A DNA stretch of 48,206 nt from an uncultured Clostridia bacterium (GTDB lineage Bacteria; Bacillota; Clostridia; Christensenellales; UBA1242): positions 1-48,206 of the forward strand of contig CALVTD010000003.1 of NCBI GenBank assembly GCA_944359935.1, read 5' to 3'. The translations under genes were made by a program, and so were the position numbers. Positions 276 to 30,990 of the stretch are shown piece after piece (the first letter of the stretch is position 1; each line of letters starts with the position of its first letter). The notes beneath the pieces are model-generated. The model ran no database searches. It saw only the letters and a list, made by a program, of their open reading frames with translations, and was not told the DNA's origin.

Positions 276-393
276 ATCTGGTGGCGATAGAGAGAAGGTT
301 CCACCTGTTCTCATTCCGAACACAGAAGTTAAGCTTCTCATCGTCGAAAATACTTGGCTGGTAACGGCCCGGGAAGATAGAACACTGCCAGAT
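276..393 (+). rRNA. rrf: 5S ribosomal RNA
   Basis: A 118-nt gene with the conserved loop sequence CCGAACACAGAAGTTAAG (about 316-333). The terminal helix pairs TCTGGTGGC at 277-285 with ACTGCCAGA at 384-392. It follows 23S directly, as expected for the end of an rRNA operon. The 3' strand (369-398) is copied several times downstream in both orientations, so only this first copy belongs to a complete 5S. Confidence 0.95.
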
Positions 394-403
394 AACAACA
401 TTA

Positions 404-429
404 AAGCAACCTTAAAAGGTTGCTTTTTT
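404..429 (+). terminator. Intrinsic terminator of the rRNA operon
   Basis: AAGCAACCTT (404-413) and AAGGTTGCTT (416-425) form a 10-bp stem with a 2-nt spacer, followed by T residues. It lies just after the 5S 3' end and is the first of three similar terminators in this tract. Confidence 0.85.
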
Positions 430-542
430 GATTTTAATTTTTGCAGTGTTCTCTCTTCCCGGAAGGGAAGATATCGCCAAGTCAAAGAAGTATGCGTGGC
501 GATGCGGGCAAGCCCTAATGAACACTGCCAGATAACAAAAAA

Positions 543-569
543 ACGCACCCGCAAGGGTGTGTTTTTTTT
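543..569 (+). terminator. Second terminator hairpin in the 5S-tail array
   Basis: ACGCACCC, loop GCAA, GGGTGTGT and a run of seven T. It follows the second direct copy of the 5S tail, just as the first terminator follows the real 5S. Confidence 0.75.
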
Positions 570-580
570 CTGGCAGTGTT

Positions 581-616
581 GTGCGTCTTTGACGCACTGC
601 ACAATTTAAATTGTGC
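581..616 (+). repeat. Double-hairpin insertion inside an inverted 5S-tail copy
   Basis: These 36 bases consist of GTGCGTC-TTT-GACGCAC (581-597), one T, and the perfect palindrome GCACAATTTAAATTGTGC (599-616). They interrupt CTGGCAGTGTT (570-580) and CTATCTTCCCG (617-627), which together are the uninterrupted reverse complement of 5S positions 370-391. This is the clearest sign in the window that hairpin modules enter a pre-existing sequence. Confidence 0.8.
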
Positions 617-694
617 CTATCTTCCCGCACGGAAAGATATCTTCGATGCGAAAAACTGCGTTTTTCTAATGAACACTGCCATATAATTTCATTA

Positions 695-728
695 AAGCGA
701 CCTCGTAAGGTCGCTTTTTATTTTTTTT
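695..728 (+). terminator. Third terminator hairpin in the 5S-tail array
   Basis: AAGCGACCT, loop CGTA, AGGTCGCTT and a T-rich tail, after the third direct 5S-tail copy. Its stem resembles the first terminator (404-429), with compensating differences. Confidence 0.8.
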
Positions 729-756
729 CTATCGGCAAAAAAATTATTACTTGTGT

Positions 757-785
757 TTGACTTTTTGCCGATAAATGCGTATAAT
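757..785 (+). promoter_or_regulatory. Sigma-A promoter of the Fic gene
   Basis: TTGACT (757-762), a 17-bp spacer and TATAAT (780-785). Transcription should start near 792, giving a leader of only about 10 nt that contains the GAGG ribosome-binding site. Confidence 0.75.
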
Positions 786-801
786 AATGTTGAGGTAAAA
801 T

Positions 802-1668
802 ATGGAGTTTGTAGGTGTAAGTGAAATCGCCAAGAAATGGGGCGTTAGTGAACGGACAGTGCGAAATGATTGCGCCACTGGCAAAGTGCCGGGTGCATTT
901 TTGCAGGGGAAAACTTGGAAAATTCCTGTTGATGCAGTTAGGCCTGTTCACAAAAAAAATAAATTGCTTGAAATTTTAAAGCAGCAAAAAGAAAGCCATT
1001 TAAAGGGCGGAATTTATCATAAAATTCAAGTGGCATTTGCATATAACTCAAATCATATTGAAGGAAGCACTTTGACGGAAGAGCAAACTCGATTTATTTA
1101 TGAAACCAAAACTATCGGTGTGCAAAAACATTCAGTGAATGTGGATGACATTATTGAAACAATCAACCATTTTAAATGCGTTGATTATGTTATTGATAAC
1201 GCATTAAAGCCATTAACTCAAAAGTTTATAAAAAAACTGCATTATATTTTGAAATCTTCAACAACAGATTCTCAAAAAGCTTGGTTTAATGTGGGAGTGT
1301 ATAAAAAATTGCCAAATGAAATAGGTGGAGAGCAAACTTGCTTGCCTGAAAATGTTGAACAAGAAATGGAAAATTTATTGCGTAAATATTCATCAATCAA
1401 AAATAAAAAACTTGAAGATATAGTTGAATTTCATCAAAAATTTGAAAAAATTCACCCATTTCAAGATGGCAATGGCAGAGTTGGGCGATTAATAATGTTT
1501 AAGGAATGTTTGGCAAACAATATTGTGCCGTTTATTATTGATGACAAATATAAAACATATTATTATCGCGGGCTTAAAGAATGGGGTAGTGAACGCGGCT
1601 TTTTGCTTGAAACATGCTTGTTTATGCAAGATAATTTTAAGAAATGGTTGGAATATTTTAGAATTTAA
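802..1668 (+). CDS. Fic family protein with N-terminal helix-turn-helix
   Basis: A 288-aa Fic-domain protein. The Fic motif HPFQDGNGRVGR is at residues 218-229 and has the catalytic His and the Gly/Asn/Arg phosphate loop, so it is probably an active AMP transferase or a related nucleotidyl transferase. Residues 83-88 (SNHIEG) match the (S/T)xxxE(G/N) autoinhibitory motif of class II Fic proteins, N-terminal to the catalytic loop. Residues 1-48 look like a small MerR/excisionase-type DNA-binding helix-turn-helix (VSEIAKKWGVSERTVRND). Such HTH-Fic proteins are usually monocistronic and may self-regulate. The target is unknown. The start is set by GAGGT eight bases upstream. No partner antitoxin gene is adjacent, consistent with the built-in inhibitory helix. 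Confidence 0.9.
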   Translation: MEFVGVSEIAKKWGVSERTVRNDCATGKVPGAFLQGKTWKIPVDAVRPVHKKNKLLEILKQQKESHLKGGIYHKIQVAFAYNSNHIEGSTLTEEQTRFIYETKTIGVQKHSVNVDDIIETINHFKCVDYVIDNALKPLTQKFIKKLHYILKSSTTDSQKAWFNVGVYKKLPNEIGGEQTCLPENVEQEMENLLRKYSSIKNKKLEDIVEFHQKFEKIHPFQDGNGRVGRLIMFKECLANNIVPFIIDDKYKTYYYRGLKEWGSERGFLLETCLFMQDNFKKWLEYFRI

Positions 1669-1763
1669 AAACTCTTTCGTAACTGAATTTGTTTTAAATT
1701 GTTGTAATCTTGCAACTTTGAGGTGTTTGCATCATATTTTCCTCTAAAAATTTAAAAAAGGTA

Positions 1764-1792
1764 TTGAAATTATTTTAATTTCGTGGTATACT
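1764..1792 (+). promoter_or_regulatory. Promoter of the surface repeat protein gene
   Basis: TTGAAA (1764-1769), a 17-bp spacer and TATACT (1787-1792). A strong AGGAGGG ribosome-binding site follows at 1833-1839. Confidence 0.7.
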
Positions 1793-1844
1793 AAGGCATA
1801 AGAAAATGATTTCAAGCATTTAATCATTATTTTAGGAGGGACAC

Positions 1845-3572
1845 ATGTCTAATAAACTTACTAAAATTTTAACTTATTGCAGTTTGGTTTTGGTTATTTT
1901 GGCCGTTGTGATTACAACCGCTATTTGTTTGACAACCGCGCTTTCTTATAAAGTTACAGTTGACGTTGTTATTCAAAACATTGTGCCAGAAGAAGCAACC
2001 GATGCCAATGTTACTGTAAATATCAACGGAACAGAAGTTTCAACTCAAAGAGAGAACACCACTCTTACAGTTAACGCTCAAAAAGATAGGGAAGTTACAA
2101 TTACTTTTAACATGACCGACTATAACTATGTTGGCTTGTATAATGGAACAAAAGACACATATCAAGGCACCGACAGCATTTTGGCTGAGCCAACCGAATA
2201 TGTTTACAAGTTCACCGTTACACAAGACACCAACTACACTCTTGTTGTGGATGCTGCATCCTTCTATCAGGTGAGTGTTGGATACAATGCTGACAAACCT
2301 GTTGACGAAGTTGAGGGTGGGGCAATCGCAGTCACTGCATCAGGCGCCGGCGTTTATGCAGATGGTGACACAGCCAACTCTTATATTGTAAGAGAGGGCG
2401 CAGAGGTTAGCGTTTCATATGAGGCAAGTGAATATACTTTCACAGGCTGGACAAATGGCGATGCAACTTCAACTGACAGCGTTTACACATTCGTTGCAAA
2501 CGGCAACACAACAGTTACTGGAAATTTTGAAGCATATGTTTATTATGATGTTAGAGTAAATTACGCTTTTGACGAGCAAGCAATTGGCGGAAACATTGCG
2601 GTTACTGCAAATGGCCAAGAGGTTACACAAGAAGGCATTACACTTAAAATTCGTGATGGCGCAAATGTTACTCTCAGCGTAGTGAGCGGAACAGGTTATG
2701 ATTTCACAGGCTGGACAAATGTCACAGACAATGCCACATCTGCAACTGTTAATATTGCTGTTTCAGCAAACGCAGAATACACTGCAAACTTTAATGTAAT
2801 TAAATATGATATTGAATATGTTGATGGTGAGGAGTCGACAACTGTGCAAGATGTGGTTTATGGCTCAACACTTCAAGCGGGTCCAGAAGACATCTACGCA
2901 AACGGCTGGAATAAATTCCTTGGCTGGACGCTTAATGGAAGAACATATACGCAAGCAATTTTTGACGGGAATAACAGGGAAATCACTTTAACAGCATCAT
3001 ATAGAAACCAAAGTGAAATCAACTACACTTTTGATGCGGCAGCAACCGATTTTAGCACTGCTGGAACAATTTCTTACAACACAGCAAATGGCCTTGACCT
3101 TGCAAATGCCCCAACAAGAGATTACTACAACCTTATTGGAATAAGCATCAACGGCACACAATATCTTTTCAATGAAGAAAAAACTGGTTTCGCTGACGCG
3201 CAAAACACAATCGACCAATATTTGGTTAATCAAAGTGCCTCAACACTTACAGTTACTCCAATTTGGGAACTTGATGGTGCACCTATAACAGTAAACTTAC
3301 CAAGCGACTCTGATTTCAGCGGAAACATGGATAATGAAGACCAAATTACAGCAGATGCGAACATCGAAACATTGATGGTTACAGAATTCTTTGGAATTGA
3401 CGCTTCGCAAATTGCAAGTTTCAAGATTCAATATAACAGCAGAACTTACACAGTTTCTAGAACAACCGCCGATGCTTATGCAACAATCTCATTTGCAGAT
3501 GTGTTTGACACAATCGGGTTTGATGCAAGTGCATCAACAGAATTGACATTCATCTTTACAAGCAATGTTTAA
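1845..3572 (+). CDS. Membrane-anchored surface protein with InlB-like (Listeria-Bacteroides) repeats
   Basis: A 575-aa predicted extracytoplasmic protein. Residues about 12-35 form one hydrophobic segment after a short basic N-terminus, acting as an uncleaved anchor or signal peptide. The rest is rich in Thr, Asn, Ala and Tyr. It contains repeated beta-strand units with the pattern FTGWTN...(T/A)xxx(F/V)xxN...TxxFE, for example near residues 198-230 and 286-315, and a variant with KFLGWTLNG near 353. This resembles the InlB B-repeat/Flg_new family found in adhesins and surface proteins. I see no LPXTG or other C-terminal sorting signal, so the N-terminal helix is the likely anchor. It is monocistronic, with its own promoter and terminator. 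The binding partner is unknown. Confidence 0.75.
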   Translation: MSNKLTKILTYCSLVLVILAVVITTAICLTTALSYKVTVDVVIQNIVPEEATDANVTVNINGTEVSTQRENTTLTVNAQKDREVTITFNMTDYNYVGLYNGTKDTYQGTDSILAEPTEYVYKFTVTQDTNYTLVVDAASFYQVSVGYNADKPVDEVEGGAIAVTASGAGVYADGDTANSYIVREGAEVSVSYEASEYTFTGWTNGDATSTDSVYTFVANGNTTVTGNFEAYVYYDVRVNYAFDEQAIGGNIAVTANGQEVTQEGITLKIRDGANVTLSVVSGTGYDFTGWTNVTDNATSATVNIAVSANAEYTANFNVIKYDIEYVDGEESTTVQDVVYGSTLQAGPEDIYANGWNKFLGWTLNGRTYTQAIFDGNNREITLTASYRNQSEINYTFDAAATDFSTAGTISYNTANGLDLANAPTRDYYNLIGISINGTQYLFNEEKTGFADAQNTIDQYLVNQSASTLTVTPIWELDGAPITVNLPSDSDFSGNMDNEDQITADANIETLMVTEFFGIDASQIASFKIQYNSRTYTVSRTTADAYATISFADVFDTIGFDASASTELTFIFTSNV

Positions 3573-3580
3573 TAACAACA

Positions 3581-3612
3581 AAAAGCCTTGAAAAAATTCA
3601 AGGCTTTTTTAA
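3581..3612 (+). terminator. Terminator of the surface protein gene
   Basis: AAAGCCTTGAA, loop AAAA, TTCAAGGCTTT and a T run. An 11-bp stem just after the stop codon. Confidence 0.9.
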
Positions 3613-3630
3613 TTTTTTTATTAAAATTTG

Positions 3631-3659
3631 TTGACAAAGTTATTTTACTTTGGTATATT
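3631..3659 (+). promoter_or_regulatory. Promoter of tRNA-Val
   Basis: Perfect TTGACA (3631-3636), a 17-bp spacer and TATATT (3654-3659), about 20 bp before the mature tRNA start. Confidence 0.85.
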
Positions 3660-3678
3660 TATCTTGCATCCTTTATTT

Positions 3679-3754
3679 GGGAGTTTAGCTCAGCTGGGAG
3701 AGCATCTGCCTTACAAGCAGAGGGTCATAGGTTCGAGCCCTATAACTCCCACCA
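3679..3754 (+). tRNA. tRNA-Val (anticodon TAC)
   Basis: A 76-nt cloverleaf. Acceptor GGGAGTT pairs with AACTCCC, the anticodon loop is CTTACAA (TAC) and the T loop is GTTCGAG. ACCA ends the gene with CCA encoded. It has its own promoter and terminator. Confidence 0.97.
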
Positions 3755-3756
3755 GC

Positions 3757-3787
3757 AAAAAAGCACACGCATGTGTGCTTTTTTATT
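3757..3787 (+). terminator. Terminator of tRNA-Val
   Basis: AAGCACAC-GCAT-GTGTGCTT flanked by A and T runs (stem at 3761-3780). Confidence 0.85.
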
Positions 3788-3846
3788 TTGCCTTTGGCAA
3801 AATTGCATGGCTTTGCCATGCGCTGGTGGGAGATATATCTGCGCTT

Positions 3847-3871
3847 GGCTCACTCTTGCAAGCAAGTTCGC
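3847..3871 (+). repeat. Motif D copy 1
   Basis: A 25-bp motif beginning GGCTCACTC and ending GCAAGCAAGTTCGC. It differs at one position from the copy on the minus strand at 21639-21663, more than 17 kb away. Confidence 0.75.
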
Positions 3872-3929
3872 CTGCGCTTGATATAACTCCATTAGTTGCG
3901 TTTGCATGGTGGGAGATATATCAGCGCGT

Positions 3930-3954
3930 GGCTCACCATTGCAAGCAAGTTCGC
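3930..3954 (+). repeat. Motif D copy 2
   Basis: Second copy of the 25-bp motif, beginning GGCTCACCA. It differs at one position from the 21639-21663 copy and sits in the second inverted/direct tRNA-tail pair. Confidence 0.75.
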
Positions 3955-3981
3955 TTATGCCTTGATATAACTCCCACCAAA

Positions 3982-4013
3982 AAAAACGGTCATCGCAAGA
4001 TGGCTGTTTTTTT
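3982..4013 (+). terminator. Terminator hairpin at the end of the tRNA-Val element
   Basis: ACGGTCATC, GNRA-type loop GCAA, GATGGCTGT and a T run. It directly follows the exact direct copy of the tRNA tail, mirroring the tail-terminator order at the real tRNA. Confidence 0.85.
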
Positions 4014-4061
4014 CACACTTTTTTGCCAAAAAGAATATGTAAAGCAAGGAGGTTTTTTAAA

Positions 4062-4571
4062 ATGCCTATTATTTGTAATGATAACACAAATGGATGCTTT
4101 ACTGGGCCTTACTATCCGCGCCCGATTTTTCAATGCTGCTCGGGTGGTTCGTGTGGTGGCCCGAACACGATTGTAAATCCTACGCGTTCGGAAGAGTGGG
4201 GCTTTTTTGTGGGGGCGAGCGCAACGGTTGCTCAAAATCAGGCCTTGCCACTTACGCTGAATGCCAGTGCGGGTACTGCCGTTACGCAAAGTGATGCCAC
4301 AACCGTGGGACTGACGGCGGGTTCTTACCAAGTTTCGTTTAATGTAACCGCATCTTCTGCCGCCAACCCAATGGAGTTTGCCCTTGAACTTAACGGCACG
4401 GTGCTGCCTTATTCTATCGTTACTGCCACTGGTGACAGCACCAACAAAACCCTTTCAAATTCGGTGATTATTTCAGTGCCAACAAATGCCACGCTGAGGA
4501 TAGTTAACCTAACGGCAGGAAATGCCACGGCCACGCGCAGCAATTTGGCGGCGACAAAACTTTTGACATGA
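4062..4571 (+). CDS. BclA C-terminal-like jellyroll protein
   Basis: A 169-aa protein. The first 40 or so residues are rich in Cys, Pro, Gly and Tyr (for example FQCCSGGSCGGPN). The rest is a beta-rich domain with the pattern AGSYQVSFNVTAS, MEFALELNGTVLPYS and SVIISVPTNATLRIVNLTA. That pattern resembles the trimeric TNF/C1q-like C-terminal domain of exosporium collagen-like proteins (BclA type). No collagen Gly-X-Y stretch and no signal peptide are visible, as is usual for spore-layer proteins made in the mother cell. The start is fixed by AGGAGG about eight bases upstream. I see no convincing sigma-A promoter between the preceding terminator and the gene, so a sporulation sigma factor is possible. 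Role in spores is inferred, not shown. Confidence 0.6.
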   Translation: MPIICNDNTNGCFTGPYYPRPIFQCCSGGSCGGPNTIVNPTRSEEWGFFVGASATVAQNQALPLTLNASAGTAVTQSDATTVGLTAGSYQVSFNVTASSAANPMEFALELNGTVLPYSIVTATGDSTNKTLSNSVIISVPTNATLRIVNLTAGNATATRSNLAATKLLT

Positions 4572-4607
4572 TGCTAAAATTCCCTTTCATTTTTATTTCG
4601 AATGGCG

Positions 4608-4613
4608 TATAAT
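4608..4613 (+). promoter_or_regulatory. Probable -10 box for yqzL-recO
   Basis: A perfect TATAAT, but no good -35 box at the right distance. A strong AAGGAGGGGG ribosome-binding site follows at 4641-4650. Confidence 0.45.
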
Positions 4614-4655
4614 AATTATAGGGATGGCGCAGGCTAAAAAAAGGAGGGGGAAAGC

Positions 4656-4811
4656 ATGAAAAAAGATTTTGTAAATGACGAGCAACGGCTTTACTGGGAG
4701 CTTTTTAGCAAAGGTCCAAAGGGGCTGAAAGGCAACCCTCTGCTTATTACCGAGTTTATGGAAATGGAAAAAGAGCGCACAAAAATTAAAACTGAGGAGA
4801 TGTCAAGATAA
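4656..4811 (+). CDS. YqzL-like small protein
   Basis: A 51-aa protein with the pattern YWELFSKGPKG...YLL-like...EFMEMEKE. This resembles the short YqzL proteins (WxxFxxTG...YLLYKE) encoded just before recO in many Firmicutes. It has a very strong ribosome-binding site and ends four bases before the recO start, so the two are surely cotranscribed and probably translationally coupled. The function of the family is unknown to me. The assignment rests on position and the aromatic/acidic pattern and is tentative. Confidence 0.6.
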   Translation: MKKDFVNDEQRLYWELFSKGPKGLKGNPLLITEFMEMEKERTKIKTEEMSR

Positions 4812-4814
4812 CAA

Positions 4815-5525
4815 ATGTCTACAAAAGTTAAGGCTTTCGTGCTGGAAGCAAAAGATAGCAAAGAAAAAGATAAACTTGCCACCCTTTACACGCTTGAAAA
4901 TGGCAAGTTTTTTGTTAATTTTAGGGGAGTGAGGGGCGCAAAAGCAAAACTGAAAGCGGCAAAAGAAGTTTTTACTTTTGGCGAGTATGTTATTGAGCAA
5001 ACCAAGGCTGGCAACATTGTAACCGAAGCCAACATTATTGATAATTTCATGCCGCTTAGAAATGATTTGGACAAGTTCTATGAGGCATGTTCGATTTTTG
5101 ACATAGTTAAAAAACTTGGTGCGCAAACGCCAGACCCGGCACTCTTTATTGAAATTTTAAAGGCGATGAAAGCCATATGTTATGACGGGGCGCCAAAATA
5201 TTATGTTGTGATTAAGTTTTTGCTTAACATATTTGAAAACATGGGCTACAAACTTAACTTTGATAAATGTGCAAGTTGCGGCGCAGTGCTCACAGGAAAG
5301 AAATACTTGAATCTCGATTACGGCGAAATTGTCTGTGCAAATTGCAGGCAGATGACCTCAATCGAGGTTGCGCCTGCCACAATTGGCGCGCTTAAAATAA
5401 TCAAACAAACGCCTTATGAAAAACTTAAAACCGTCAAACTTGGCGGCGGAGGTGAGATTAAAGCGCTAAATCTTTTGTGTGAAAACTTTGAGTGGCGCTT
5501 TGGTAGTAAGTTTTTTATTGATTAA
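4815..5525 (+). CDS. recO: DNA repair protein RecO
   Basis: A 236-aa protein of usual RecO length. The N-terminal OB-fold (residues 1-80) starts with KVKAFVLEAKDSKEKDKLATLYT, the place where RecO binds DNA and SSB. The C-terminal helical part has a zinc site with CASCG and CANC pairs. RecO anneals SSB-coated strands and, with RecR, loads RecA at gaps. It follows the YqzL-like gene and ends in a terminator that overlaps its stop codon. In many Firmicutes recO lies near era, but here it precedes the S10 operon. Confidence 0.9.
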   Translation: MSTKVKAFVLEAKDSKEKDKLATLYTLENGKFFVNFRGVRGAKAKLKAAKEVFTFGEYVIEQTKAGNIVTEANIIDNFMPLRNDLDKFYEACSIFDIVKKLGAQTPDPALFIEILKAMKAICYDGAPKYYVVIKFLLNIFENMGYKLNFDKCASCGAVLTGKKYLNLDYGEIVCANCRQMTSIEVAPATIGALKIIKQTPYEKLKTVKLGGGGEIKALNLLCENFEWRFGSKFFID

Positions 5526-5549
5526 AAGGTTGCGTGGCAGCCTTTTTTT
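5524..5549 (+). terminator. Terminator of recO
   Basis: AAAGGTTGC-GTG-GCAGCCTTT plus T run, overlapping the recO stop codon. Confidence 0.85.
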
Positions 5550-5584
5550 ATTTGAAAAAATTTTAATTTTCTTTTGAAAAATGC

Positions 5585-5613
5585 TTGACTTAAAAGGCGT
5601 TATTGTTTATAAT
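5585..5613 (+). promoter_or_regulatory. Main promoter of the S10-spc-alpha superoperon
   Basis: TTGACT (5585-5590), a 17-bp spacer and a perfect TATAAT (5608-5613). It is the only strong promoter I see before rplQ, about 220 bp ahead of rpsJ. Confidence 0.85.
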
Positions 5614-5619
5614 TACTAT

Positions 5620-5829
5620 GCTGTGAAATATGGGTTGATGCCTAAGGTTACTTTGGTTACCGGCAATCAAAGAGAACTTGGGCGGACAAGTTCGTGGCAA
5701 GACCGCGAGCGGCTGACCTTAATCCACATTTTTTATTGCTCAGCAGCATGAAACACACGGATGCGTGTTCGAGGGTTTCAAAAAGCAAGTGGGGCAAGGC
5801 AGTTTAGCCAAAACTAGGAGGAAAATTAA
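5620..5829 (+). promoter_or_regulatory. Structured 5' leader of the S10 operon, possible attenuator
   Basis: About 210 nt of untranslated leader. The closing helices are GGGTT (5632-5636) with AATCC (5721-5725) and TAAGGT (5643-5648) with ACCTTA (5716-5721). Inside are three hairpins: CTTTG/CAAAG (5651-5655, 5668-5672), GAACTTG/CAAGTTC (5674-5680, 5687-5693) and CCGC/GCGG (5703-5712). A T-rich run follows the closing helix (5729-5734), as in an intrinsic terminator. A further stem-loop (GAAACACAC...GTGT...GTTTC, about 5750-5779) comes before the AGGAGG site. In E. coli, L4 controls this operon through its leader; an analogous role here is inference. This region accounts for the gene-free stretch 5550-5829. 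Confidence 0.65.
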
Positions 5830-6138
5830 ATGGCAACAAAGAAAATCAGGATTAAACTTAAAGCGTTTGAGCACTCACTCATCGATGAGGCTTGCAAAAG
5901 AATCATCCTTGCTGCTGAGAAAAACGGCGCCAAAGTTGCTGGTCCAATTCCACTTCCAACTGACAGGGAAGTAGTTACGGTTATCCGTTCACCACATATG
6001 CACAAAGATAGCCGTGAACAATTTGAGTCTAAGACTCACAAAAGACTTATCGATATTATTAGTCCATCCACTAAGGTTGTAGACGCTATGATGAAACTCG
6101 ACCTTCCAGCAGGCGTGGACATCCAAATCAAACTGTAA
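5830..6138 (+). CDS. rpsJ: Ribosomal protein uS10
   Basis: A 102-aa S10, the first gene of the superoperon. It belongs to the 30S head, and in other bacteria S10 (NusE) also joins NusB in antitermination. Diagnostic stretches are [14 protein letters not shown] at the N-terminus and the [14 protein letters not shown] loop. AGGAGG precedes the ATG at good distance. An unusual point is what lies before it: recO, not the str operon (rpsL-rpsG-fusA-tuf), which often sits just upstream in Firmicutes. Confidence 0.98.
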
Positions 6139-6149
6139 GGAGGCACTTC

Positions 6150-6782: not shown

Positions 6783-6796
6783 AGGAGTTAATGAAA

Positions 6797-7725: not shown

Positions 7726-7741
7726 TTAAAAGGAGGAAATC

Positions 7742-21389: not shown

Positions 21390-21480
21390 TCGTGGGGGCA
21401 AACAAAAAATTAACGCGGGCACGCCTAACGGCTAACCGCTTTTTTTGTTTTCTCCCACGAACCCTCGGGCGAATTGCAAC

Positions 21481-21517
21481 TTAATGCTTGTTTTCGCCTT
21501 TTGGCGAAAATCTGCGC
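21481..21517 (+). repeat. Motif A copy 1
   Basis: TTAATGCTTG, stem TTTTCGCC, loop TTTT, stem GGCGAAAA, then CTGCGC. The second copy at 30644-30680 keeps the flanks but has stem CGCT/AGCG in place of CGCC/GGCG, a compensatory pair change. Confidence 0.8.
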
Positions 21518-21540
21518 GCGAGCAGTTGAATTCGCCCTCT

Positions 21541-21588
21541 CGCGGCCAAACGAAAATCGCGCTAACGCTGGCGATTTTGCCGCGACTT
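21541..21588 (+). repeat. Motif B copy 1
   Basis: Hairpin CGCGGC...GCCGCGACTT with inner stem AAAATCGC/GCGATTTT. The asymmetric bulge contains CCAAACG, which is kept in all three copies. Confidence 0.8.
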
Positions 21589-21638
21589 AAAGAGGAAGTG
21601 GTTAAAAATGGACGCGGCTGGCGCATTAGACGAGAAAG

Positions 21639-21663
21639 GCGAACTTGCTTGCAAGGGTGAGCC
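21639..21663 (-). repeat. Motif D copy 3 (inverted)
   Basis: On the minus strand this reads GGCTCACCC...GCAAGCAAGTTCGC, 24 of 25 identical to each copy after tRNA-Val. Confidence 0.8.
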
Positions 21664-21763
21664 TGCCGAAGTCGCATTCTCTCGCAGAGAGAATTAGAGG
21701 TGACAGCAAATTTTCATGAACAGGCACAGCCTTTGCCTCATGAAAATTTGGCTCCAATGTTTT

Positions 21764-22779: not shown

Positions 22780-22796
22780 TAAACTAAGGAGTTAGC

Positions 22797-23558: not shown

Positions 23559-23560
23559 AT

Positions 23561-24523: not shown

Positions 24524-24532
24524 GGAGAAATC

Positions 24533-27500
24533 ATGAAACAATTTGTGCACTTGCATGTCCACACCGAATACAGTTTGCTTGATGGACTGGCTCGTATTGA
24601 AAAATTGATTGAAATAACCAAAGAGCGTGGGTGGAAAGCCGTGGCCATTACAGACCATGGCAACATGTTTGGTGTGCTTAAATTTTATGAGGCTTGCATC
24701 TTAAATGGCATCAAGCCAATTATTGGCTGTGAGTTTTACATAGCGCGCGACCACAAAGTTAAAAACACCAAAGAGGATATTGGACACCTTATCTTGCTGG
24801 CAAAAAATAATGAAGGCTATCACAATCTGTTAAAACTCATTTCAATTGCGCACGTTGACGGAATGTATTACAAACCAAGAATTGACTATGAACTTTTGAA
24901 AAAATATTCCAAGGGCGTGATTTGCCTTTCCGCGTGCCTGGCAGGCCATGTGCAGAAACTAATTTTGCAGAGGCGCTTTGACGAGGCTGAAAAGTGCGCG
25001 CTTTGGCATAAGGAAGTGTTTGGAGATGACTACTATCTTGAATTGCAAAACCACTATTTGCCAGAGGACAAAGAGGTGATTTTGCACTTGACCGAACTTT
25101 CCAAAAAACTTGGCATTAAACTTGTTGCCACCAACGACGTGCACTATCTCAACAAAGAGGATGCCGAACTTCAAGACGCGCTGATGTGTGTGCAGATGCA
25201 TAAGTTTGTGGATGACAACGACAGAATGAAGTTTGAAACAAACGAGTTTTACTATAAAACCTATGAAGAAATGTTGGAGGCGCTGCCAGGATATGAGGAG
25301 GCGCTGGACACAACTCTTGAAATTGCCGACAAATGCGAGGTTGTGCTTAAAACCAAATCACTGGGCGAAATTGCCAGTGTGGACGAAAAATACAAACTTC
25401 CAGCGAATAGAAACTATATCCCTCAATATGTGCCAGAAACAGGCGAAACCACCTTTGACTATTTAAAGCGCATGGCGTATGAGGGCCTTGAAAAACTATA
25501 TCCTGAAATCACCGATGAACTTAAAGAGCGCATGGAGATGGAACTGCAAACCATTAAAGAGCAAGGGTTTGTGGAATACTTTTTGGTTGTGTGGGACTAC
25601 ATCAATTATGCAAGGCAAAATGACATACCTGTTGGGCCGGGGCGTGGCTCTGGCGCAGGCAGTTTGGTGGCGTACTGCATTGGCATCACCAAAGTTGACC
25701 CAATGAAATATCATTTGTTCTTTGAGCGCTTTATCAATAAAGAGCGTGTGTCCATGCCCGATTTCGACGTGGATTTTTGTATGGATAGGCGCGGCGAGGT
25801 TATTGAATATGTTAAGCGCAAATACGGCCCTGACCATGTGGCAGGTATTGTTACATTTGGATCAATGAAAGCCAAAAACGCCATTCGTGATGTTGGCAGG
25901 GTGCTTAGGCTTCCAATAAGCGTGGTGGATAAACTTTGCAAAGATATTCCAAACTTTCCACCTGATGGACTTAAAAAAGATAAGCCGGTTTTGAAATATT
26001 ATTTTGGCAGAACCAAAGACCCGGCGAATGATAAATTCATCATTCCAGATTTAAAAAAGGCATATGAAGAGGATGAACTTGTCAAGAAGGTTGTTGACAT
26101 GGCAATCAAACTTGAAGGCGTGCCAAGAAACACATCCATGCATGCGGCAGGTGTGTTGATTGCTCCACAACCTGCATCCGATTTTGTGCCACTTGCACGA
26201 AACGGCGAGGATATTGTTACTGAATATGACATGATTGAAATTGAGCATCTTGGGCTTTTGAAGATGGACTTTTTGGGGCTTAGAACACTTACCGACATCA
26301 AGAAAGCGCAGGATTATATCAAAGAAAACCATGGCGTGGACATTGATTTCTACAACATGGAATATGACGACCCAAAAGTTTTTGAACTGATAAGTTCGGG
26401 CAACACCGATGCCGTGTTCCAACTTGAAAGCGCGGGCATGAAGCGGTTCATGAAGGATTTGGGGCCAACCTGCATGGACGACATCATTGCGGGGATTTCG
26501 CTTTACCGTCCAGGACCAATGGATTCCATTCCGCAGTTTGTCAAGTGTAAAAAAGACCCTTCTGCCGTTGTGTATGACGACCCATGCTTGGAAGATATTT
26601 TGGATGTTACTTACGGGTGCATTGTCTACCAAGAGCAGGTTATGAAAATCACTCAGGTTATGGCAGGATTTTCACTTGGTCAAGCGGATAACATCCGCCG
26701 TATCATGGGCAAAAAGAAGGTTGATAAAATTGCAGCCGAAAAAGTTAAGTTTGTGGAAGGCTGGGAGGACCCAACCGGCAAAGCCTCAATTCCAGGTGCC
26801 GTAAAACTTGGGCACAAAAGGGAAGTGGCAGAAAAAGTGTTCGACCGCATGGCTGAATTTGCAAAGTATGCCTTCAACAAATCTCACGCTGCGGCATACG
26901 CATATGTGGGCTATCAAACCGCCTATCTTAAAACATACTATGAAGTTGAGTTTTTGACCGCTGTTTTAAATAACCGAATAACCAACGCGGATGAAATTAA
27001 AAAATATGTTACATATGCTAAAAAAGAGGGCTTTGAGGTGTTGCCGCCAGACATCAACAAATCTGGCACATATTTCAAAACCGAGAACGGCAACATCCGT
27101 TTTGGGCTTGCCGCACTTAAAGGCGTTGGCGCAAGCGTTATTGATTTGATTATCAACGAGCGCAACAAAGGCGGCGAGTTTAAAAGTTTTGAAGACTTTG
27201 TTTCAAGGGTGGATACTCAGGCGCTTAACAAAAGAGTGCTTGAAAGTTTGATTGTAAGCGGTGCGTTTGACACCTTTGGAAAATATCGCTCACAACTTAT
27301 GGCAGTTTATTCCATTGCCGTTGACAGGGCTGTAAAAGATAACAAAAATAAACAAACAGGGCAGTTTAGCATGTTTGATAGTTTTGAGCCGCTAAAAAAT
27401 CAATTCAACACACTAGATTATCCAAATATAAAAGAATACAACAAAGAGTCGCTGCTCAAATTTGAAAAAGAGGTGGTGGGAATTTATCTTTCAGGCCATC

Positions 27501-28150
27501 CGCTTAATGACTATCTCGACTATTACGACAACTTCAATTTGACAAGCGACATGATGAAACCTGCCGAGGATATGGACGAAGAATTGGAAGAAGAGGGCGG
27601 CGAGCAAGATGCCGTTTACGACCAAATTTATGACGGCATGCCTGTAACTTGCGGCGGAATTATCGTTGATAAAAACAAAAAATTGGGTAAGGATGGCAGA
27701 GAGTTTGCCTTTCTTAAAATTGAAGATTTATACGGGACTTTTGAAGTTTCGCTGTTTGGAAATGTTTATCCAAGGTTTAAAAATATTGTGGATGAGGATG
27801 CACTGGTTACGGTTAAGGGCAAAATCTCGCTGAGAAACGGCTCGCCAAGCGTCAATGCGCAAGAGATTATACCTTGGAAAAAGCGTGGCGAGCAGGCACA
27901 AGTTGACAACACTTCAAGCAAACTTTACCTTCGTTTTGACACTAAGGACATTGACATTTACAACAAGGTGTGCTCTTCGCTCAATGCCTATCCTGGCGAG
28001 GCGGAGGTGATTATCAAATGCACCTCATATAACAAGGCGTTTATGTATAACGCCAAAGTTGAGTTAAACAACTATCTTCTAAATGAACTATACGGCATAA
28101 TTGGCTATGATAATGTAAAAACTAATCAAGTTAAAAAGGAGAACGCATGA
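24533..28150 (+). CDS. dnaE: DNA polymerase III alpha subunit DnaE
   Basis: A 1205-aa replicative polymerase of the DnaE1-like type. Domains in order: PHP (HLHVHTEYSLLDG at 5-17, ITDHGNMFG), palm with GPGRGSGAGSLVAY and the catalytic Asp pair in MPDFDVDFC, fingers with KYAFNKSHAAAYAYVGYQT, tandem helix-hairpin-helix (GLAALKGVGASVIDLI), an OB-fold domain (TVKGKISLRNGSPSVNAQEI) and a short C-terminal part. No exonuclease insertion is seen, so it is not PolC. The PHP His residues look intact, so PHP-type proofreading is possible. Firmicutes usually also have PolC elsewhere. An acidic linker (EDMDEELEEEGGEQD) precedes the OB-fold. The start of the next gene overlaps its stop. Confidence 0.97.
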   Translation: MKQFVHLHVHTEYSLLDGLARIEKLIEITKERGWKAVAITDHGNMFGVLKFYEACILNGIKPIIGCEFYIARDHKVKNTKEDIGHLILLAKNNEGYHNLLKLISIAHVDGMYYKPRIDYELLKKYSKGVICLSACLAGHVQKLILQRRFDEAEKCALWHKEVFGDDYYLELQNHYLPEDKEVILHLTELSKKLGIKLVATNDVHYLNKEDAELQDALMCVQMHKFVDDNDRMKFETNEFYYKTYEEMLEALPGYEEALDTTLEIADKCEVVLKTKSLGEIASVDEKYKLPANRNYIPQYVPETGETTFDYLKRMAYEGLEKLYPEITDELKERMEMELQTIKEQGFVEYFLVVWDYINYARQNDIPVGPGRGSGAGSLVAYCIGITKVDPMKYHLFFERFINKERVSMPDFDVDFCMDRRGEVIEYVKRKYGPDHVAGIVTFGSMKAKNAIRDVGRVLRLPISVVDKLCKDIPNFPPDGLKKDKPVLKYYFGRTKDPANDKFIIPDLKKAYEEDELVKKVVDMAIKLEGVPRNTSMHAAGVLIAPQPASDFVPLARNGEDIVTEYDMIEIEHLGLLKMDFLGLRTLTDIKKAQDYIKENHGVDIDFYNMEYDDPKVFELISSGNTDAVFQLESAGMKRFMKDLGPTCMDDIIAGISLYRPGPMDSIPQFVKCKKDPSAVVYDDPCLEDILDVTYGCIVYQEQVMKITQVMAGFSLGQADNIRRIMGKKKVDKIAAEKVKFVEGWEDPTGKASIPGAVKLGHKREVAEKVFDRMAEFAKYAFNKSHAAAYAYVGYQTAYLKTYYEVEFLTAVLNNRITNADEIKKYVTYAKKEGFEVLPPDINKSGTYFKTENGNIRFGLAALKGVGASVIDLIINERNKGGEFKSFEDFVSRVDTQALNKRVLESLIVSGAFDTFGKYRSQLMAVYSIAVDRAVKDNKNKQTGQFSMFDSFEPLKNQFNTLDYPNIKEYNKESLLKFEKEVVGIYLSGHPLNDYLDYYDNFNLTSDMMKPAEDMDEELEEEGGEQDAVYDQIYDGMPVTCGGIIVDKNKKLGKDGREFAFLKIEDLYGTFEVSLFGNVYPRFKNIVDEDALVTVKGKISLRNGSPSVNAQEIIPWKKRGEQAQVDNTSSKLYLRFDTKDIDIYNKVCSSLNAYPGEAEVIIKCTSYNKAFMYNAKVELNNYLLNELYGIIGYDNVKTNQVKKENA

Positions 28151-29019
28151 AGATTTTGCTGATTGCAAGTGGTGGCGATGCACCTGGCATGAACAAGTTT
28201 ATTGCACAAATGTATAAAAGGTATGGCAGCAGCCTTTACGCTTGCAAGGGCGGTTTTGAAGGGTTGTATAACGCAGACATTGTGCCTGCAAGGTTTTTTG
28301 AGCCGTTCAAAGTTGCAAATAGTGCAGGATGCTGTATTAAAAGTGGAAGATTTCCGCAATTTAAACAAAAAAAATATTTTAACAAAGCACTTGAAAACGC
28401 CAAGAATTTCGACTTTGTGGTTGTCATGGGCGGGAATGGTTCAAAGAAGGGCGTTAAAGAACTTGCAGAGGGCGGCGTAAAAGCAATTTTTGTGCCTGCA
28501 ACCATCGACAATGATGTTGAGGGCACAAATTACTCCATTGGCTTTCACACCGCTGTTGCCATGGTTTGCTACGCCGTTAGAAATGTTATGCCAAGCATGC
28601 AATCACACTCTCGGGCGTGCGTGTTTGAGGTGATGGGCAGGCACTCGGGCGAGATTGCACAAAACGCAGCAAAAATTTTGCAGCCGCAATTTTTGATTAC
28701 TCAGCCATCTCAGTTAAACATACCTGAAATGGCAAGCGAAATTTTAAAACGCCACAAAAAAGACCAAGCCACATCAATCATCATTCGTGAAAACATCATA
28801 GATTGCGATGATTTAACAAAAAAATTAAATGATGAAATTGGCCAGAGACTTGTGAAAAATTTTGTGGTTGGGCATCTTCAAAGAGGGGGAAAGCCAACAA
28901 AGGCAGAACTTAAAATGTCTGCCGCTTTTGCCTATGCAACCATTAAAGCGATAGGCAAAAATCAAAGTGGCGTGGCAATAGAGTTTGTTGACGGCAAAAT
29001 GCGCATACAAGAAATATGA
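28147..29019 (+). CDS. Divergent 6-phosphofructokinase-like protein
   Basis: A 290-aa member of the PfkA superfamily (about 320 aa is usual). Recognised motifs: GGDAPGMN (9-16), SGRFPQF, PATIDNDVEGT with the catalytic Asp, EVMGRHSGEIA and GHLQRGG. The phosphate-donor motif GGDGS reads GGNGS here (residues about 96-100), so the Asp that binds Mg-ATP in PfkA is Asn. PATIDND also lies between the ATP form (PGTIDND) and the PPi form (PKTIDND), and the segment after QRGG is divergent and short. It may use another donor, another sugar phosphate or be regulatory. It overlaps dnaE by 4 bp; dnaE-pfkA is a standard Clostridial pair, but the usual pyruvate kinase gene does not follow. Confidence 0.8.
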   Translation: MKILLIASGGDAPGMNKFIAQMYKRYGSSLYACKGGFEGLYNADIVPARFFEPFKVANSAGCCIKSGRFPQFKQKKYFNKALENAKNFDFVVVMGGNGSKKGVKELAEGGVKAIFVPATIDNDVEGTNYSIGFHTAVAMVCYAVRNVMPSMQSHSRACVFEVMGRHSGEIAQNAAKILQPQFLITQPSQLNIPEMASEILKRHKKDQATSIIIRENIIDCDDLTKKLNDEIGQRLVKNFVVGHLQRGGKPTKAELKMSAAFAYATIKAIGKNQSGVAIEFVDGKMRIQEI

Positions 29020-29059
29020 TAAATAAAATGAGACAAAATGGTTTTTTTTGGTTAAATCG

Positions 29060-29088
29060 TTGACAAAAAGCGCAGGTTATGATATATT
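29060..29088 (+). promoter_or_regulatory. Promoter of the tRNA cluster
   Basis: Perfect TTGACA (29060-29065), a 17-bp spacer and TATATT (29083-29088), 20 bp before tRNA-Gly. Confidence 0.85.
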
Positions 29089-29108
29089 TACATAGTCGCT
29101 TAGCGCGC

Positions 29109-29182
29109 GCGGGTGTAGTTCAGTGGTAGAACCCCAGCCTTCCAAGCTGGTTGCGAGGGTCCGATTCCCTTCACCCGCTCCA
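29109..29182 (+). tRNA. tRNA-Gly (anticodon TCC)
   Basis: A 74-nt cloverleaf with acceptor GCGGGTG/CACCCGC, anticodon loop CTTCCAA (TCC) and T loop GGTCCGATTCCC. CCA is encoded. First gene of the cluster. Confidence 0.96.
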
Positions 29183-29187
29183 TTCGG

Positions 29188-29264
<77 letters not shown>

Positions 29265-29270
29265 TAATAT

Positions 29271-29347
29271 GGTGGTCGTAGTTCAGTTGGCAGAACGCCA
29301 GATTGTGGCTCTGGAGGTCAAGGGTTCGATCCCCTTCGATCACCCCA
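29271..29347 (+). tRNA. tRNA-His (anticodon GTG)
   Basis: Acceptor GTGGTCG/CGATCAC with an encoded extra G at position -1 (29271) facing discriminator C, the His identity element. Anticodon loop TTGTGGC (GTG). CCA encoded. Confidence 0.96.
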
Positions 29348-29361
29348 TATTTACTTTTCGG

Positions 29362-29436
29362 TGGGGTGTCGCCAAGCGGTAAGGCATTGGACTCTGACTC
29401 CAACATGCGTAGGTTCGAATCCTACCACCCCAGCCA
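29362..29436 (+). tRNA. tRNA-Gln (anticodon CTG)
   Basis: A 75-nt cloverleaf with acceptor TGGGGTG/CACCCCA, anticodon loop CTCTGAC (CTG), T arm GTAGG/CCTAC and encoded CCA. Parts of its 3' half are copied inverted and direct just downstream. Confidence 0.96.
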
Positions 29437-29589
29437 AGTTGGTTCGTCAGGCTGCTTTATTGGCAGGATTCGAACCTACGGTTCGCCCCTTCGGGCGGGG
29501 AACAAAGCAAGTTTGTTCCCGTTTTGACTGAAAAACAAGCACACCGGCTTGTTTTCCCGAGCGTCAAAACTTTTGCCACCCCAGCCAAT
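29437..29589 (+). repeat. tRNA-Gln(CTG) tail satellite element
   Basis: The T arm of the adjacent tRNA (29409-29426) is present as an inverted copy at 29462-29479, with 17 of 18 bases matching. It is followed by core hairpin CGCCCCTTCGGGCGGGG (29484-29500), AACAAA-GCAAG-TTTGTT (29501-29517), and a nested hairpin GTTTTGAC...GTCAAAAC with inner AAAACAAGC/GCTTGTTTT (29521-29570). The tract ends in a direct copy of the acceptor end, CCACCCCAGCCAA (29576-29588, identical to 29425-29437). A complete tRNA is not rebuilt. Confidence 0.85.
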
Positions 29590-29611
29590 AATTACGCAAA
29601 AAAATCAACAC

Positions 29612-29687
29612 GGTTCACTAGCTCAGTCGGTAGAGCACTTGACTTTTAATCAAGGGGTCCCGGGTTCGAGCCCCGGGTGAGCCACCA
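29612..29687 (+). tRNA. tRNA-Lys (anticodon TTT)
   Basis: A 76-nt cloverleaf with acceptor GGTTCAC/GTGAGCC, anticodon loop CTTTTAA (TTT) and encoded CCA. Last gene of the cluster. Confidence 0.97.
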
Positions 29688-29713
29688 AAAAACTCCTTTT
29701 TGGGAGTTTTTTT
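29687..29713 (+). terminator. Terminator of the tRNA cluster
   Basis: AAAAACTCC-TTTTT-GGGAGTTTTTTT right after tRNA-Lys. Confidence 0.85.
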
Positions 29714-29745
29714 ATTTAATCAAAAATTCTGGGTTAAAATCGTTA

Positions 29746-29774
29746 TTGACTTTGTGTTATAAATAATTTATAAT
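29746..29774 (+). promoter_or_regulatory. Promoter of the 226-aa protein gene
   Basis: TTGACT (29746-29751), a 17-bp spacer and TATAAT (29769-29774). An AAAGGGTGGG ribosome-binding region follows. Confidence 0.75.
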
Positions 29775-29795
29775 TCATTTATCAAAGGGTGGGAA

Positions 29796-30476
29796 ATGGA
29801 AGATTTTGTTAAAACAACGCTGAAAAAATATTTGGATGAAGGCAAAACATTGATTGAATGCAGAAAGTTGGGATTGGACATAAGTCAATTACCAGATAAA
29901 AATTTTGATTATTTTTGTTTGTCCACGCAAAGGTTTCCAGACAACTATTTTGAAGAGGAGAAAAATGGCGTTACATATGTCACTCCTGATAAAATTAAAA
30001 ATTCCCGCTTGCCGCACATGGGAATCATTCTTAAAGACGGAACAATTTTTAGAGTTGACACCTTTCATGCCGAAGTTGCTTTGTGGCTTAAATTCAACAA
30101 GCGCAACCCACAAGATAAAGAGTACATTGATTTGCGCGGCAGTTTAAGATATGTGCATTTTCCTCATTCTAAAAAATTGAGTGTGGTGCAAGGCTATGAT
30201 TATTCTAAAAAATTTGAACAAACAAACTTATATGATTTGATACATGCTTGGACAACTTACTATGACTGCACAAAGCATGACACTGATATTTTGCTAACTG
30301 AAAATCAAGTTATCACGCTTTTTAGGTTGTGTAAAGTGTATGATGTTGATTTTGAAGATATGCTAAACAGCAATGTTGGCTTTTGCATGGAGAGCGTTAA
30401 TCCTGAGCAAAGAAAAAAGGCAAATCAAAACAACAGTTTGATTAACGCAACTTTAAGTAGAATTCGCGATTTTTAA
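29796..30476 (+). CDS. Protein of unknown function between tRNA genes
   Basis: A 226-aa soluble protein I do not recognise. It has no signal peptide or membrane segment. Notable stretches are MGIILKDGTIFRVDTFHAEVALWLKF (residues about 70-95), where FHAEVALW recalls the HAE motif of zinc-dependent deaminases. However, the PCxxC partner motif of that fold is absent, so I do not assign it. The C-terminal third is helical and ends RKKANQNNSLINATLSRIRDF. It has its own promoter and ribosome-binding site and lies alone between tRNA-Lys and tRNA-Gln, a typical place for acquired genes, yet base use is like its neighbours. Confidence 0.7.
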   Translation: MEDFVKTTLKKYLDEGKTLIECRKLGLDISQLPDKNFDYFCLSTQRFPDNYFEEEKNGVTYVTPDKIKNSRLPHMGIILKDGTIFRVDTFHAEVALWLKFNKRNPQDKEYIDLRGSLRYVHFPHSKKLSVVQGYDYSKKFEQTNLYDLIHAWTTYYDCTKHDTDILLTENQVITLFRLCKVYDVDFEDMLNSNVGFCMESVNPEQRKKANQNNSLINATLSRIRDF

Positions 30477-30506
30477 TTTATTGTGCAAAGTTTTTTGCCA
30501 ATTTTG

Positions 30507-30535
30507 TTGACTTATTGGCCATGTTTTGATAAAAT
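30507..30535 (+). promoter_or_regulatory. Promoter of the second tRNA-Gln
   Basis: TTGACT (30507-30512), a 17-bp spacer and TAAAAT (30530-30535). Confidence 0.7.
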
Positions 30536-30553
30536 ATCTTTGCACTTAAATAT

Positions 30554-30628
30554 TGGGGTGTCGCCAAGCGGTAAGGCACAAGACTTTGACTCTTGCATGC
30601 GCAGGTTCAAATCCTGCCACCCCAGCCA
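30554..30628 (+). tRNA. tRNA-Gln (anticodon TTG)
   Basis: A 75-nt cloverleaf with acceptor TGGGGTG/CACCCCA, anticodon loop CTTTGAC (TTG), T arm GCAGG/CCTGC and encoded CCA. Very similar to the CTG tRNA-Gln except in the T arm and anticodon stem. These differences are mirrored in the two downstream inverted copies. Confidence 0.96.
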
Positions 30629-30643
30629 AATGAAAAAACTGCG

Positions 30644-30680
30644 TTAATGCTTGTTTTCGCTTTGCAGCGAAAAGCTGCGC
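30644..30680 (+). repeat. Motif A copy 2
   Basis: TTAATGCTTG, stem TTTTCGCT, loop TTGC, stem AGCGAAAA, then GCTGCGC. Same flanks as the copy at 21481 with a compensatory change in the stem. Confidence 0.8.
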
Positions 30681-30702
30681 TCTTTTACTTGTTTTTTCAT
30701 TT

Positions 30703-30742
30703 CGCGACCAAACGCAAGTCGACGAGCGACTTGGTCGCGACT
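30703..30742 (+). repeat. Motif B copy 2
   Basis: CGCGACC...GGTCGCGACT with inner stem AAGTCG/CGACTT and the conserved bulge CCAAACG. Outer-stem pairs differ from the other copies in a compensatory way. Confidence 0.75.
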
Positions 30743-30853
30743 GCCGTCCGCAGCTGAAATTCTAAGTAATTTTGGGCTATGATAAACTGCGCTTGTGTTC
30801 TGTCTGTGCTTGCAGCCCGGCGATGAACGCTGGCGCTTGTTTTTTTTGTAATG

Positions 30854-30894
30854 CGCGGCCAAACGAAAATGCCAAAGGCATTTTGCCGCGACTT
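30854..30894 (+). repeat. Motif B copy 3
   Basis: CGCGGCCAAACGAAAAT, a short inner stem GCC-AAA-GGC, then ATTTTGCCGCGACTT. Outer and lower parts are identical to 21541-21588; only the tip differs. Confidence 0.8.
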
Positions 30895-30990
30895 GAATTT
30901 GTTAAAATAAAACCCGTTTTTTTATTCTCGGCAGGATTTGAACCTGCGACCCGCCTCTTCGGGCGGGAAAAACAATATGCAATTTTTGCA

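What the first reader, a model, noticed from the sequence alone, without database searches (positions are those of the whole stretch)
369..30985. A dispersed family of hairpin elements that carry copies of the gene end they sit behind
Five intergenic tracts (after 5S, tRNA-Val, rplQ and two tRNA-Gln genes) share one architecture. Each has inverted copies of the end or flank of the gene immediately upstream; three (5S, Val, Gln-CTG) also have direct copies. These alternate with hairpin modules, several of which recur between loci (motifs A, B, D and the CGCC-CTTCGGGCGGG core). The captured part is local: the tRNA-Gln(CTG) tract copies GTAGGTTCGAATCCT, while the tRNA-Gln(TTG) tract copies GCAGGTTCAAATCCT, each matching its own tRNA. 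A family simply containing a fixed tRNA fragment would not do this. Two models fit: a REP-like mobile hairpin moved by a Y1-type (RAYT-like) transposase that targets RNA 3' ends, or snap-back template switching at terminator hairpins that repeatedly copies upstream sequence in reverse. I know of no described family with this behaviour.
Basis: partly seen in the sequence, partly recalled or inferred. Interest (0 to 1): 0.85.

Follow-up and report, generated by a model that had tools for sequence, protein, structure and literature searches.

The report
RtT-like star repeats beside RNA genes
Next to many tRNA genes and the 5S rRNA gene, this gut bacterium carries short hairpin-rich repeats, each built around a flipped and a straight copy of that gene's own end; they are laid out like the old, little-understood RtT repeats of E. 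coli, which suggests such repeats are more widespread than catalogued.

Summary
In this genome 15 of 34 tRNA genes have in their flanks a copy that matches them better than any tRNA of another anticodon (0.9 expected), on both sides of genes, not only behind them. On the 3' side the usual order is gene, terminator-like hairpin, inverted copy (mostly of the T-arm), hairpins, direct copy to the gene's 3' end. In 15 of 17 hand-chosen units the two copies pair in the predicted fold, in 12 around two or more hairpins. Copy number behind 5S runs from zero to several among 11 related genomes.

Two tracts differ. rplQ holds a dispersed hairpin element, not gene copies. The Gln(TTG) inverted copy matches a tRNA-Met slightly better than its own tRNA.

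The layout is not unknown: E. coli tyrT/tyrV, lysQ and lysV have it, and Rfam names these RtT. The Clostridial units tested do not match RtT by sequence. No Y1/RAYT transposase was found here. Best explanation: hairpin-guided template switching (tandem inversion duplication) at structured RNA genes, then tandem growth. Mechanism and any function are inferred.

The parts
277..393 (+). 5S rRNA gene, source of the copies in the first tract
   Evidence: Rfam RF00001
403..429 (+). first terminator-like hairpin after 5S
   Evidence: sequence
443..533 (+). star unit 1 behind 5S: inverted 5S end 443-462, hairpins, direct 5S end from 521; predicted fold z -5.3
541..569 (+). second terminator-like hairpin
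569..684 (+). star unit 2 behind 5S: inverted copy 570-580 and a further inverted piece at about 617-627, hairpins, direct copy from 671; predicted fold z -6.8
694..719 (+). third terminator-like hairpin
3679..3754 (+). tRNA-Val(TAC)
3824..3892 (+). Val unit 1: inverted 3' end, antisense B core (3847-3872), partial direct copy
3907..3979 (+). Val unit 2: inverted 3' end, B-like core, direct copy GATATAACTCCCACC at 3964-3978; folds as one long hairpin, z -5.9
21390..21460 (+). H hairpin directly after the rplQ stop codon; part of a dispersed element, not a gene copy
21467..21749 (+). rest of the rplQ composite element (modules 21467-21537, 21541-21584, B core 21638-21663, 21708-21749); similar DNA on other contigs of the genome
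21764..21791 (+). terminator-like hairpin; in related genome G020 rplQ is followed by a short terminator-like hairpin and no such insert (by eye)
29362..29436 (+). tRNA-Gln(CTG)
29461..29587 (+). star unit behind Gln(CTG): inverted T-arm 29462-29480, hairpins (one at 29484-29500), direct 3' end at 29576-29587; predicted fold z -4.7
30554..30628 (+). tRNA-Gln(TTG)
30639..30967 (+). Gln(TTG) tract: dispersed modules 30639-30679, 30703-30739, 30854-30890, then an inverted T-arm 30930-30948 and hairpin 30950-30967; no direct copy found

Best explanation
The 5S, Val and Gln(CTG) tracts are RtT-like units beside structured-RNA genes. Each unit is an inverted copy of the gene's 3' part (in most tRNAs the T-arm, about 30 to 8 nt before the gene end; in Val the last 14 nt), hairpins, and a direct copy running through the gene's 3' end, often followed by another terminator-like hairpin. 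Shown: layout, locus specificity, enrichment at tRNA genes, variable copy number at 5S. Inferred: they arise by hairpin-guided template switching. The growing strand folds back on the gene end, copies the T-arm in reverse, and returns to its template because the T-stem is self-complementary, giving direct-inverted-direct structures (tandem inversion duplications). Mirror-image events at the anticodon or D arm would make the upstream copies. Units then multiply in tandem and gather hairpins, some from dispersed repeats. By analogy with the annotated E. coli rttR RNA, units may be released from precursor transcripts as small RNAs ending in the copied 3' end; this is untested here.
For: Locus specificity: 15 of 34 tRNA genes (0.9 expected) here, and 11 of the 52 examined in three related genomes of the genus (about 1.5 expected). 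tRNA genes rather than protein genes at score 12 (5 of 11 against 4 of 171; see caveats in the observation check). Inverted copy first in 24 of 29 preselected 3' tracts; 28 of 34 direct copies reach the gene's last base. Over 15 hand-chosen units, inverted copy equals gene but not direct copy at 39 positions, direct equals gene but not inverted at 14, the two copies equal each other but not the gene at 4, all three agree at 177, all differ at 6: the inverted arm looks copied from the gene. Five or more pairs between the two copies in 15 of 17 chosen units. 5S in 11 genomes: no copy in three (G020, G003, G005), one unit in two, two in three, several in one, incomplete in two. Same layout behind E. 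coli tyrT/tyrV, lysQ and lysV.
Against: The inverted copy usually starts about 8 nt before the gene end and does not continue the terminator, so a plain snap-back at the terminator needs a skip. 5 of 29 tracts begin with a direct copy. Two of 17 units do not form the closing stem (Ser-tga, G022 Thr; z 0.6 and 0.2), and three (Val, L195 Val, Met) are one long hairpin, not a star. In E. coli lysQ/lysV the inverted arm pairs locally in the predicted fold, not with the direct copy, and the other lys spacers and the arg spacers have a direct copy with only a short closing stem. tmRNA, which has a T-arm and CCA end, shows no inverted-direct unit in 12 genomes (one weak inverted match, score 12, in G019). 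Hairpins shared between tRNAs need an extra spreading process. The excess of own copies at protein genes at score 16 (3 against 0.27) is only partly explained. No event was observed; apart from E. coli the genomes are drafts.
Confidence: 0.52

Rival explanations
1. A mobile hairpin element of REP/MITE type, moved by a transposase in trans, inserts beside RNA genes and captures the flank.
For: The B core has a dispersed, often tandem carrier of about 137 bp; by crude ORF of 88 canonical copies lie between genes, with no orientation bias to the 5' neighbour (42 same, 39 opposite). The rplQ element has many partial copies in the genome. The hp hairpin lies within 400 bp of a tRNA at all 9 matches (6 loci).
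Against: No Y1 transposase (PF01797) in this genome; a fixed element does not predict copies specific to each tRNA; E. coli shows the layout with different hairpins. Other transposase types were not searched.
Confidence: 0.2
2. Purely functional structured trailer RNA: selection builds and keeps the closing stem, and likeness to the gene follows from function (processing, backup termination, sponge or decoy RNA).
For: Closing stem between the copies in 15 of 17 chosen units, E. coli tyr among them; closing stem of the B core covaries (position 2: CG 39, TA 15, GC 13, AT 11; 94% paired against 45% shuffled, 84 flank pairs); Val units of L176 differ from the others by paired changes in the stem (by eye); E. 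coli rttR is annotated as an RNA.
Against: The inverted arm matches the gene where the direct arm does not (39 against 14 positions); no copies behind 5S in three related genomes; copies also occur 5' of genes.
Confidence: 0.17
3. Remnants of serial site-specific integration at tRNA genes (att-site arrays).
For: Direct copies run from inside the tRNA to its 3' end, as integrase att sites do (recalled).
Against: Does not explain the inverted copies; the 17 units folded are 72-196 nt, too short for an integrase gene (one E. coli unit holds the annotated 90-nt tpr frame); 5S is affected too. Integrase genes were not searched for.
Confidence: 0.07
4. Assembly artefact of metagenome bins.
For: Some copies of the dispersed element lie near contig ends (C35, C46, C50).
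Against: Related tracts recur at Val and 5S in several separately assembled genomes, and the layout is present in the complete E. coli K-12 genome.
Confidence: 0.03

Closest known systems
RtT RNA (Rfam RF00391) and the E. coli tyrT 178-bp repeats (repeat literature recalled, not read)
   Same: Behind a tRNA; direct copies of the tRNA 3' end with hairpins between; inverted T-arm at tyrT/tyrV, lysQ and lysV; tandem; closing stem at tyr; the model matches units at two tRNA species (Tyr, Lys), each with its own tRNA end.
   Different: No match to RF00391 in the window or in 7 Clostridial loci tested; other hairpin modules; here also at 5S and on the 5' side.
Tandem inversion duplication / inverted triplication (Kugelberg 2010 seen only as a reference in PMC4689423, of which passages were read)
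   Same: Direct-inverted-direct order, attributed to template switching (recalled).
   Different: Here very short units at RNA genes, retained and amplified; no experimental evidence.
REP/BIME elements with RAYT transposases (recalled)
   Same: Dispersed intergenic hairpins.
   Different: No Y1 transposase found in this genome; the gene-end sequence is locus specific.

Membership tests
RtT (RF00391) | sequence and structure match to the Rfam model at its gathering score | tested here: not met
   window; 7 Clostridial loci: none
RtT (RF00391) | lies 3' of a tRNA gene and ends in a copy of its 3' end | tested here: met
   for Val and Gln(CTG); also at 5S; not met by the rplQ and Gln(TTG) tracts
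RtT (RF00391) | hairpins enclosed by a closing stem | tested here: met
   15 of 17 chosen units pair, 12 of them around two or more hairpins by eye (one of the 17 is E. coli tyr)
RtT (RF00391) | released as an RNA from the tRNA transcript | not testable with these tools
   no transcript data; E. coli rttR annotated
Tandem inversion duplication | direct-inverted-direct order | tested here: met
   24 of 29 preselected 3' tracts start with the inverted copy; 19 of the 29 show inverted then direct, 5 inverted only, 5 direct only
Tandem inversion duplication | junctions at palindromes | tested here: inconclusive
   15 of 34 direct copies begin 18-22 nt before the gene end, near the T-loop, but the first junction is not at the terminator itself
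REP/RAYT | Y1 transposase in the genome | tested here: not met
   0 in G000, 3 of 25 genus genomes
tRNA integrative element remnant | linked integrase | not tested
   no integrase search made

The most novel reading that the evidence does not exclude
RtT of E. coli and the Clostridial tracts belong to one recurrent, cross-phylum class of trailer repeats that arise again and again, without a transposase, wherever a structured RNA gene offers self-complementary arms for strand fold-back, so that each gene manufactures its own trailer element.
Probability: 0.45. Interest if true: 0.75.

Novelty: new variant of a known kind. Interest (0 to 1): 0.58.

Why it matters
It would turn an E. coli oddity (RtT) into a recurrent product of how replication handles structured RNA genes, and give a lineage with copies at many genes, copy-number variation and sites without copies in which to test how inverted-direct repeats arise. 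It also warns that direct copies of tRNA ends are not always integration scars.

Tried and rejected
Y1/RAYT transposase: 41 genomes searched, none in this genome. Loss of the palindrome nuclease SbcCD as the cause: SbcD-like matches in 27 of 41 genomes, over the curated cut-off in 5; in this genome one partial match on contig C36; not supported, not excluded. SbcC was not searched. A tRNA-like minihelix with a full acceptor stem as the rule: rejected, because in Glu, Leu, Met and Gln the inverted arm covers the T-arm, not the acceptor end. Viral origin of the B core: 0 exact matches in viral contigs. hp pattern (one exact form): 5 of 151 genomes of the order, 9 matches, reversed-pattern control 0; in a phylum draw of 398 genomes only this genome itself. 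Rfam scan of the 5S tract at a loose threshold: 16 matches, all below their gathering scores. Literature: nine searches; no paper in the rows listed describes such arrays by title or start of abstract; three of the searches listed only the top rows of 196, 133 and 449 papers, two found none, and the library holds open-licence papers only. Passages read: PMC4689423; PMC2658671, a table row giving rtT RNA a 175-bp and tRNA-Gly a 220-bp repeat-number difference; PMC7657543.

Limits: the own-copy tests in the three related, four order and three phylum genomes used only the tRNAs lying in loci fetched (52, 76 and 75 genes). The E. coli test used 13 fetched regions (51 ARAGORN genes, one a spurious antisense call; 13 with own copy, 1.0 expected, all Tyr, Lys or Arg and mostly in the same clusters); a fourteenth region without tRNA (L362) was dropped. 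The 17 folded and 15 compared units were chosen by hand, mostly; Ser-tga and G022 Thr were folded but not compared. Gene calls for context were crude ORF calls.
Full report
What is there. The window is contig C3 of an 867-kb metagenome bin. tRNA and rRNA positions come. The 5S tract runs: gene end, terminator-like hairpin, inverted 5S end, hairpins, direct 5S end, second terminator-like hairpin, inverted, hairpins, direct, third terminator-like hairpin. Val and Gln(CTG) have inverted and then direct copies too; Gln(CTG) has no clear terminator before the inverted copy. The rplQ tract is another thing: a composite of hairpin modules between the stop codon and a terminator-like hairpin, with partial copies on many other contigs of the genome; the outer stem of its first hairpin resembles the stems of six other copies. 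The Gln(TTG) tract mixes such modules with one inverted T-arm and no direct copy; an inverted T-arm also follows Gln(TTG) in the related genome G020.

Is it more than chance? For every tRNA gene I asked whether its own sequence is found in its flanks (500 bp downstream, 300 bp upstream, tRNA genes masked) with a score of at least 12 and better than any tRNA of another anticodon. In this genome 15 of 34 are positive, 0.9 expected. G015, G020 and G022 of the same genus gave 3 of 17, 5 of 17 and 3 of 18 (0.1, 0.6 and 0.8 expected). Four genomes of other families of the order gave 0 of 20, 2 of 13, 2 of 22 and 4 of 21 (0.4, 0.2, 0.2 and 0.9 expected). Three other genomes of the phylum gave 1 of 32, 0 of 25 and 0 of 18 (about 0.8 expected in all). 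In 210 kb of this genome, 5 of 11 tRNA genes and 4 of 171 protein genes were positive at score 12 (0.17 and 1.94 expected); at score 16 it was 3 of 11 and 3 of 171 (0.03 and 0.27 expected). Two of the four protein genes flank an A-rich simple repeat, one runs into the dispersed element, one is unexplained. So the effect is local and tied mainly to RNA genes; of the genomes tested it is strongest here and not above chance in the three other genomes of the phylum.

Anatomy. Of 29 tracts with a clear 3'-side signal (preselected; two are E. coli tyr genes), the first copy after the gene is inverted in 24 and direct in 5. In most tRNAs the inverted copy spans about 30 to 8 nt before the gene end; in Val it is the last 14 nt. 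Of 34 direct copies scoring at least 12, 28 reach the last base of the gene and 15 begin 18-22 nt before it, in or near the T-loop. On the 5' side 13 of 23 direct copies begin at the first base of the gene; their inner ends scatter, with groups in the D-loop and anticodon-loop regions. Seventeen hand-chosen units were folded: in 15 the inverted and direct ends pair (5 to 20 pairs), in 12 of these around two or more hairpins by eye; Val, L195 Val and Met are one long hairpin; Ser-tga and G022 Thr do not close. In 15 units the inverted copy agrees with the gene against the direct copy at 39 positions, the direct with the gene against the inverted at 14, and the two copies with each other against the gene at 4. 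The inverted arm therefore looks copied from the gene and not merely matched to the direct arm.

Gain and loss. Behind 5S, 11 genomes of the genus show no copy in three (G020, G003, G005), a direct copy only in G002, inverted copies only in G022, one unit in G132 and G147, two in G000, G052 and G010, and several in G015; a twelfth, G019, gave no 5S match. Behind rplQ, G020 has only a short terminator-like hairpin (by eye). Val tracts recur in several genomes with one to three or more units. tmRNA shows no unit in 12 genomes, with one weak inverted match in G019.

Hairpin modules. The core GAACTTGCTTGCAAGRGTGA was found in at least 117 stretches of genome contigs; the 80 titles listed are all uncultured Clostridia, Eubacteriales, Firmicutes or Christensenella bins. 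No viral contig matched. Its usual carrier is a repeat of about 137 bp, often in tandem, with a closing stem that covaries. Another hairpin, GGGGTCCCYNAAAAT...ATTTTTNGGG, was found 9 times in 5 of 151 genomes of the order, the reversed pattern never; all 9 lie within 400 bp of a tRNA gene, at 6 loci.

Comparison with the known. In E. coli K-12 the region behind tyrT and tyrV has the order inverted T-arm, hairpins, direct 3' end, repeated. lysQ and lysV have terminator, inverted T-arm, hairpins, direct 3' end and a copy of the terminator, though in the predicted fold the inverted arm pairs locally. The other lys spacers and the argV cluster have a direct copy with hairpins and a short closing stem. 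Rfam RtT matches the tyr units (4 matches) and the units of lysT, lysW, lysY, lysZ, lysQ and lysV, and not the arg cluster at its gathering score. The Clostridial units tested are thus organised like RtT without matching it in sequence; I do not file them as RtT.

Mechanism. The pattern is what hairpin-guided template switching would leave, as in tandem inversion duplications: fold back on the gene end, copy the T-arm in reverse, return through the self-complementary T-stem and copy the gene end again. It would also explain why tRNA and 5S genes are hit far more than protein genes. It is an inference, and the absence of units at tmRNA and the direct-only cases do not follow from it. A transposase-driven element remains possible for the dispersed modules, though no Y1 transposase was found here. 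A function as processed trailer RNA is possible by analogy with rttR and is untested.

Noticed in passing
L075 1040-1460; also L173, L193, L227: Tandem repeats carrying the B core (about 137 bp in L075, L173 and L227; about 150 bp behind tRNA-Val in L193). The 137-bp form is spread between genes in many related bins without orientation preference; looks like an undescribed MITE-like family.
   Followed up: partly
L106 1840-1960 (G022): A tRNA-Met-like sequence whose 5' part appears replaced by a hairpin, perhaps a broken tRNA gene.
   Followed up: no
L356 (E. coli argV-argY-argZ-argQ): Direct copies of the tRNA end with hairpins like those of the lys tRNA spacers, not matched by Rfam RtT at its gathering score.
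   Followed up: partly
window 802-1668: ORF with a HPFQDGNGR motif, as in Fic proteins (read by eye; name from recall).
   Followed up: no
window 34463-34623: Short-period A-rich tandem repeats around the end of one ORF and the start of the next.
   Followed up: no
G000 C2 30845-49546: One open reading frame of 6233 codons.
   Followed up: no
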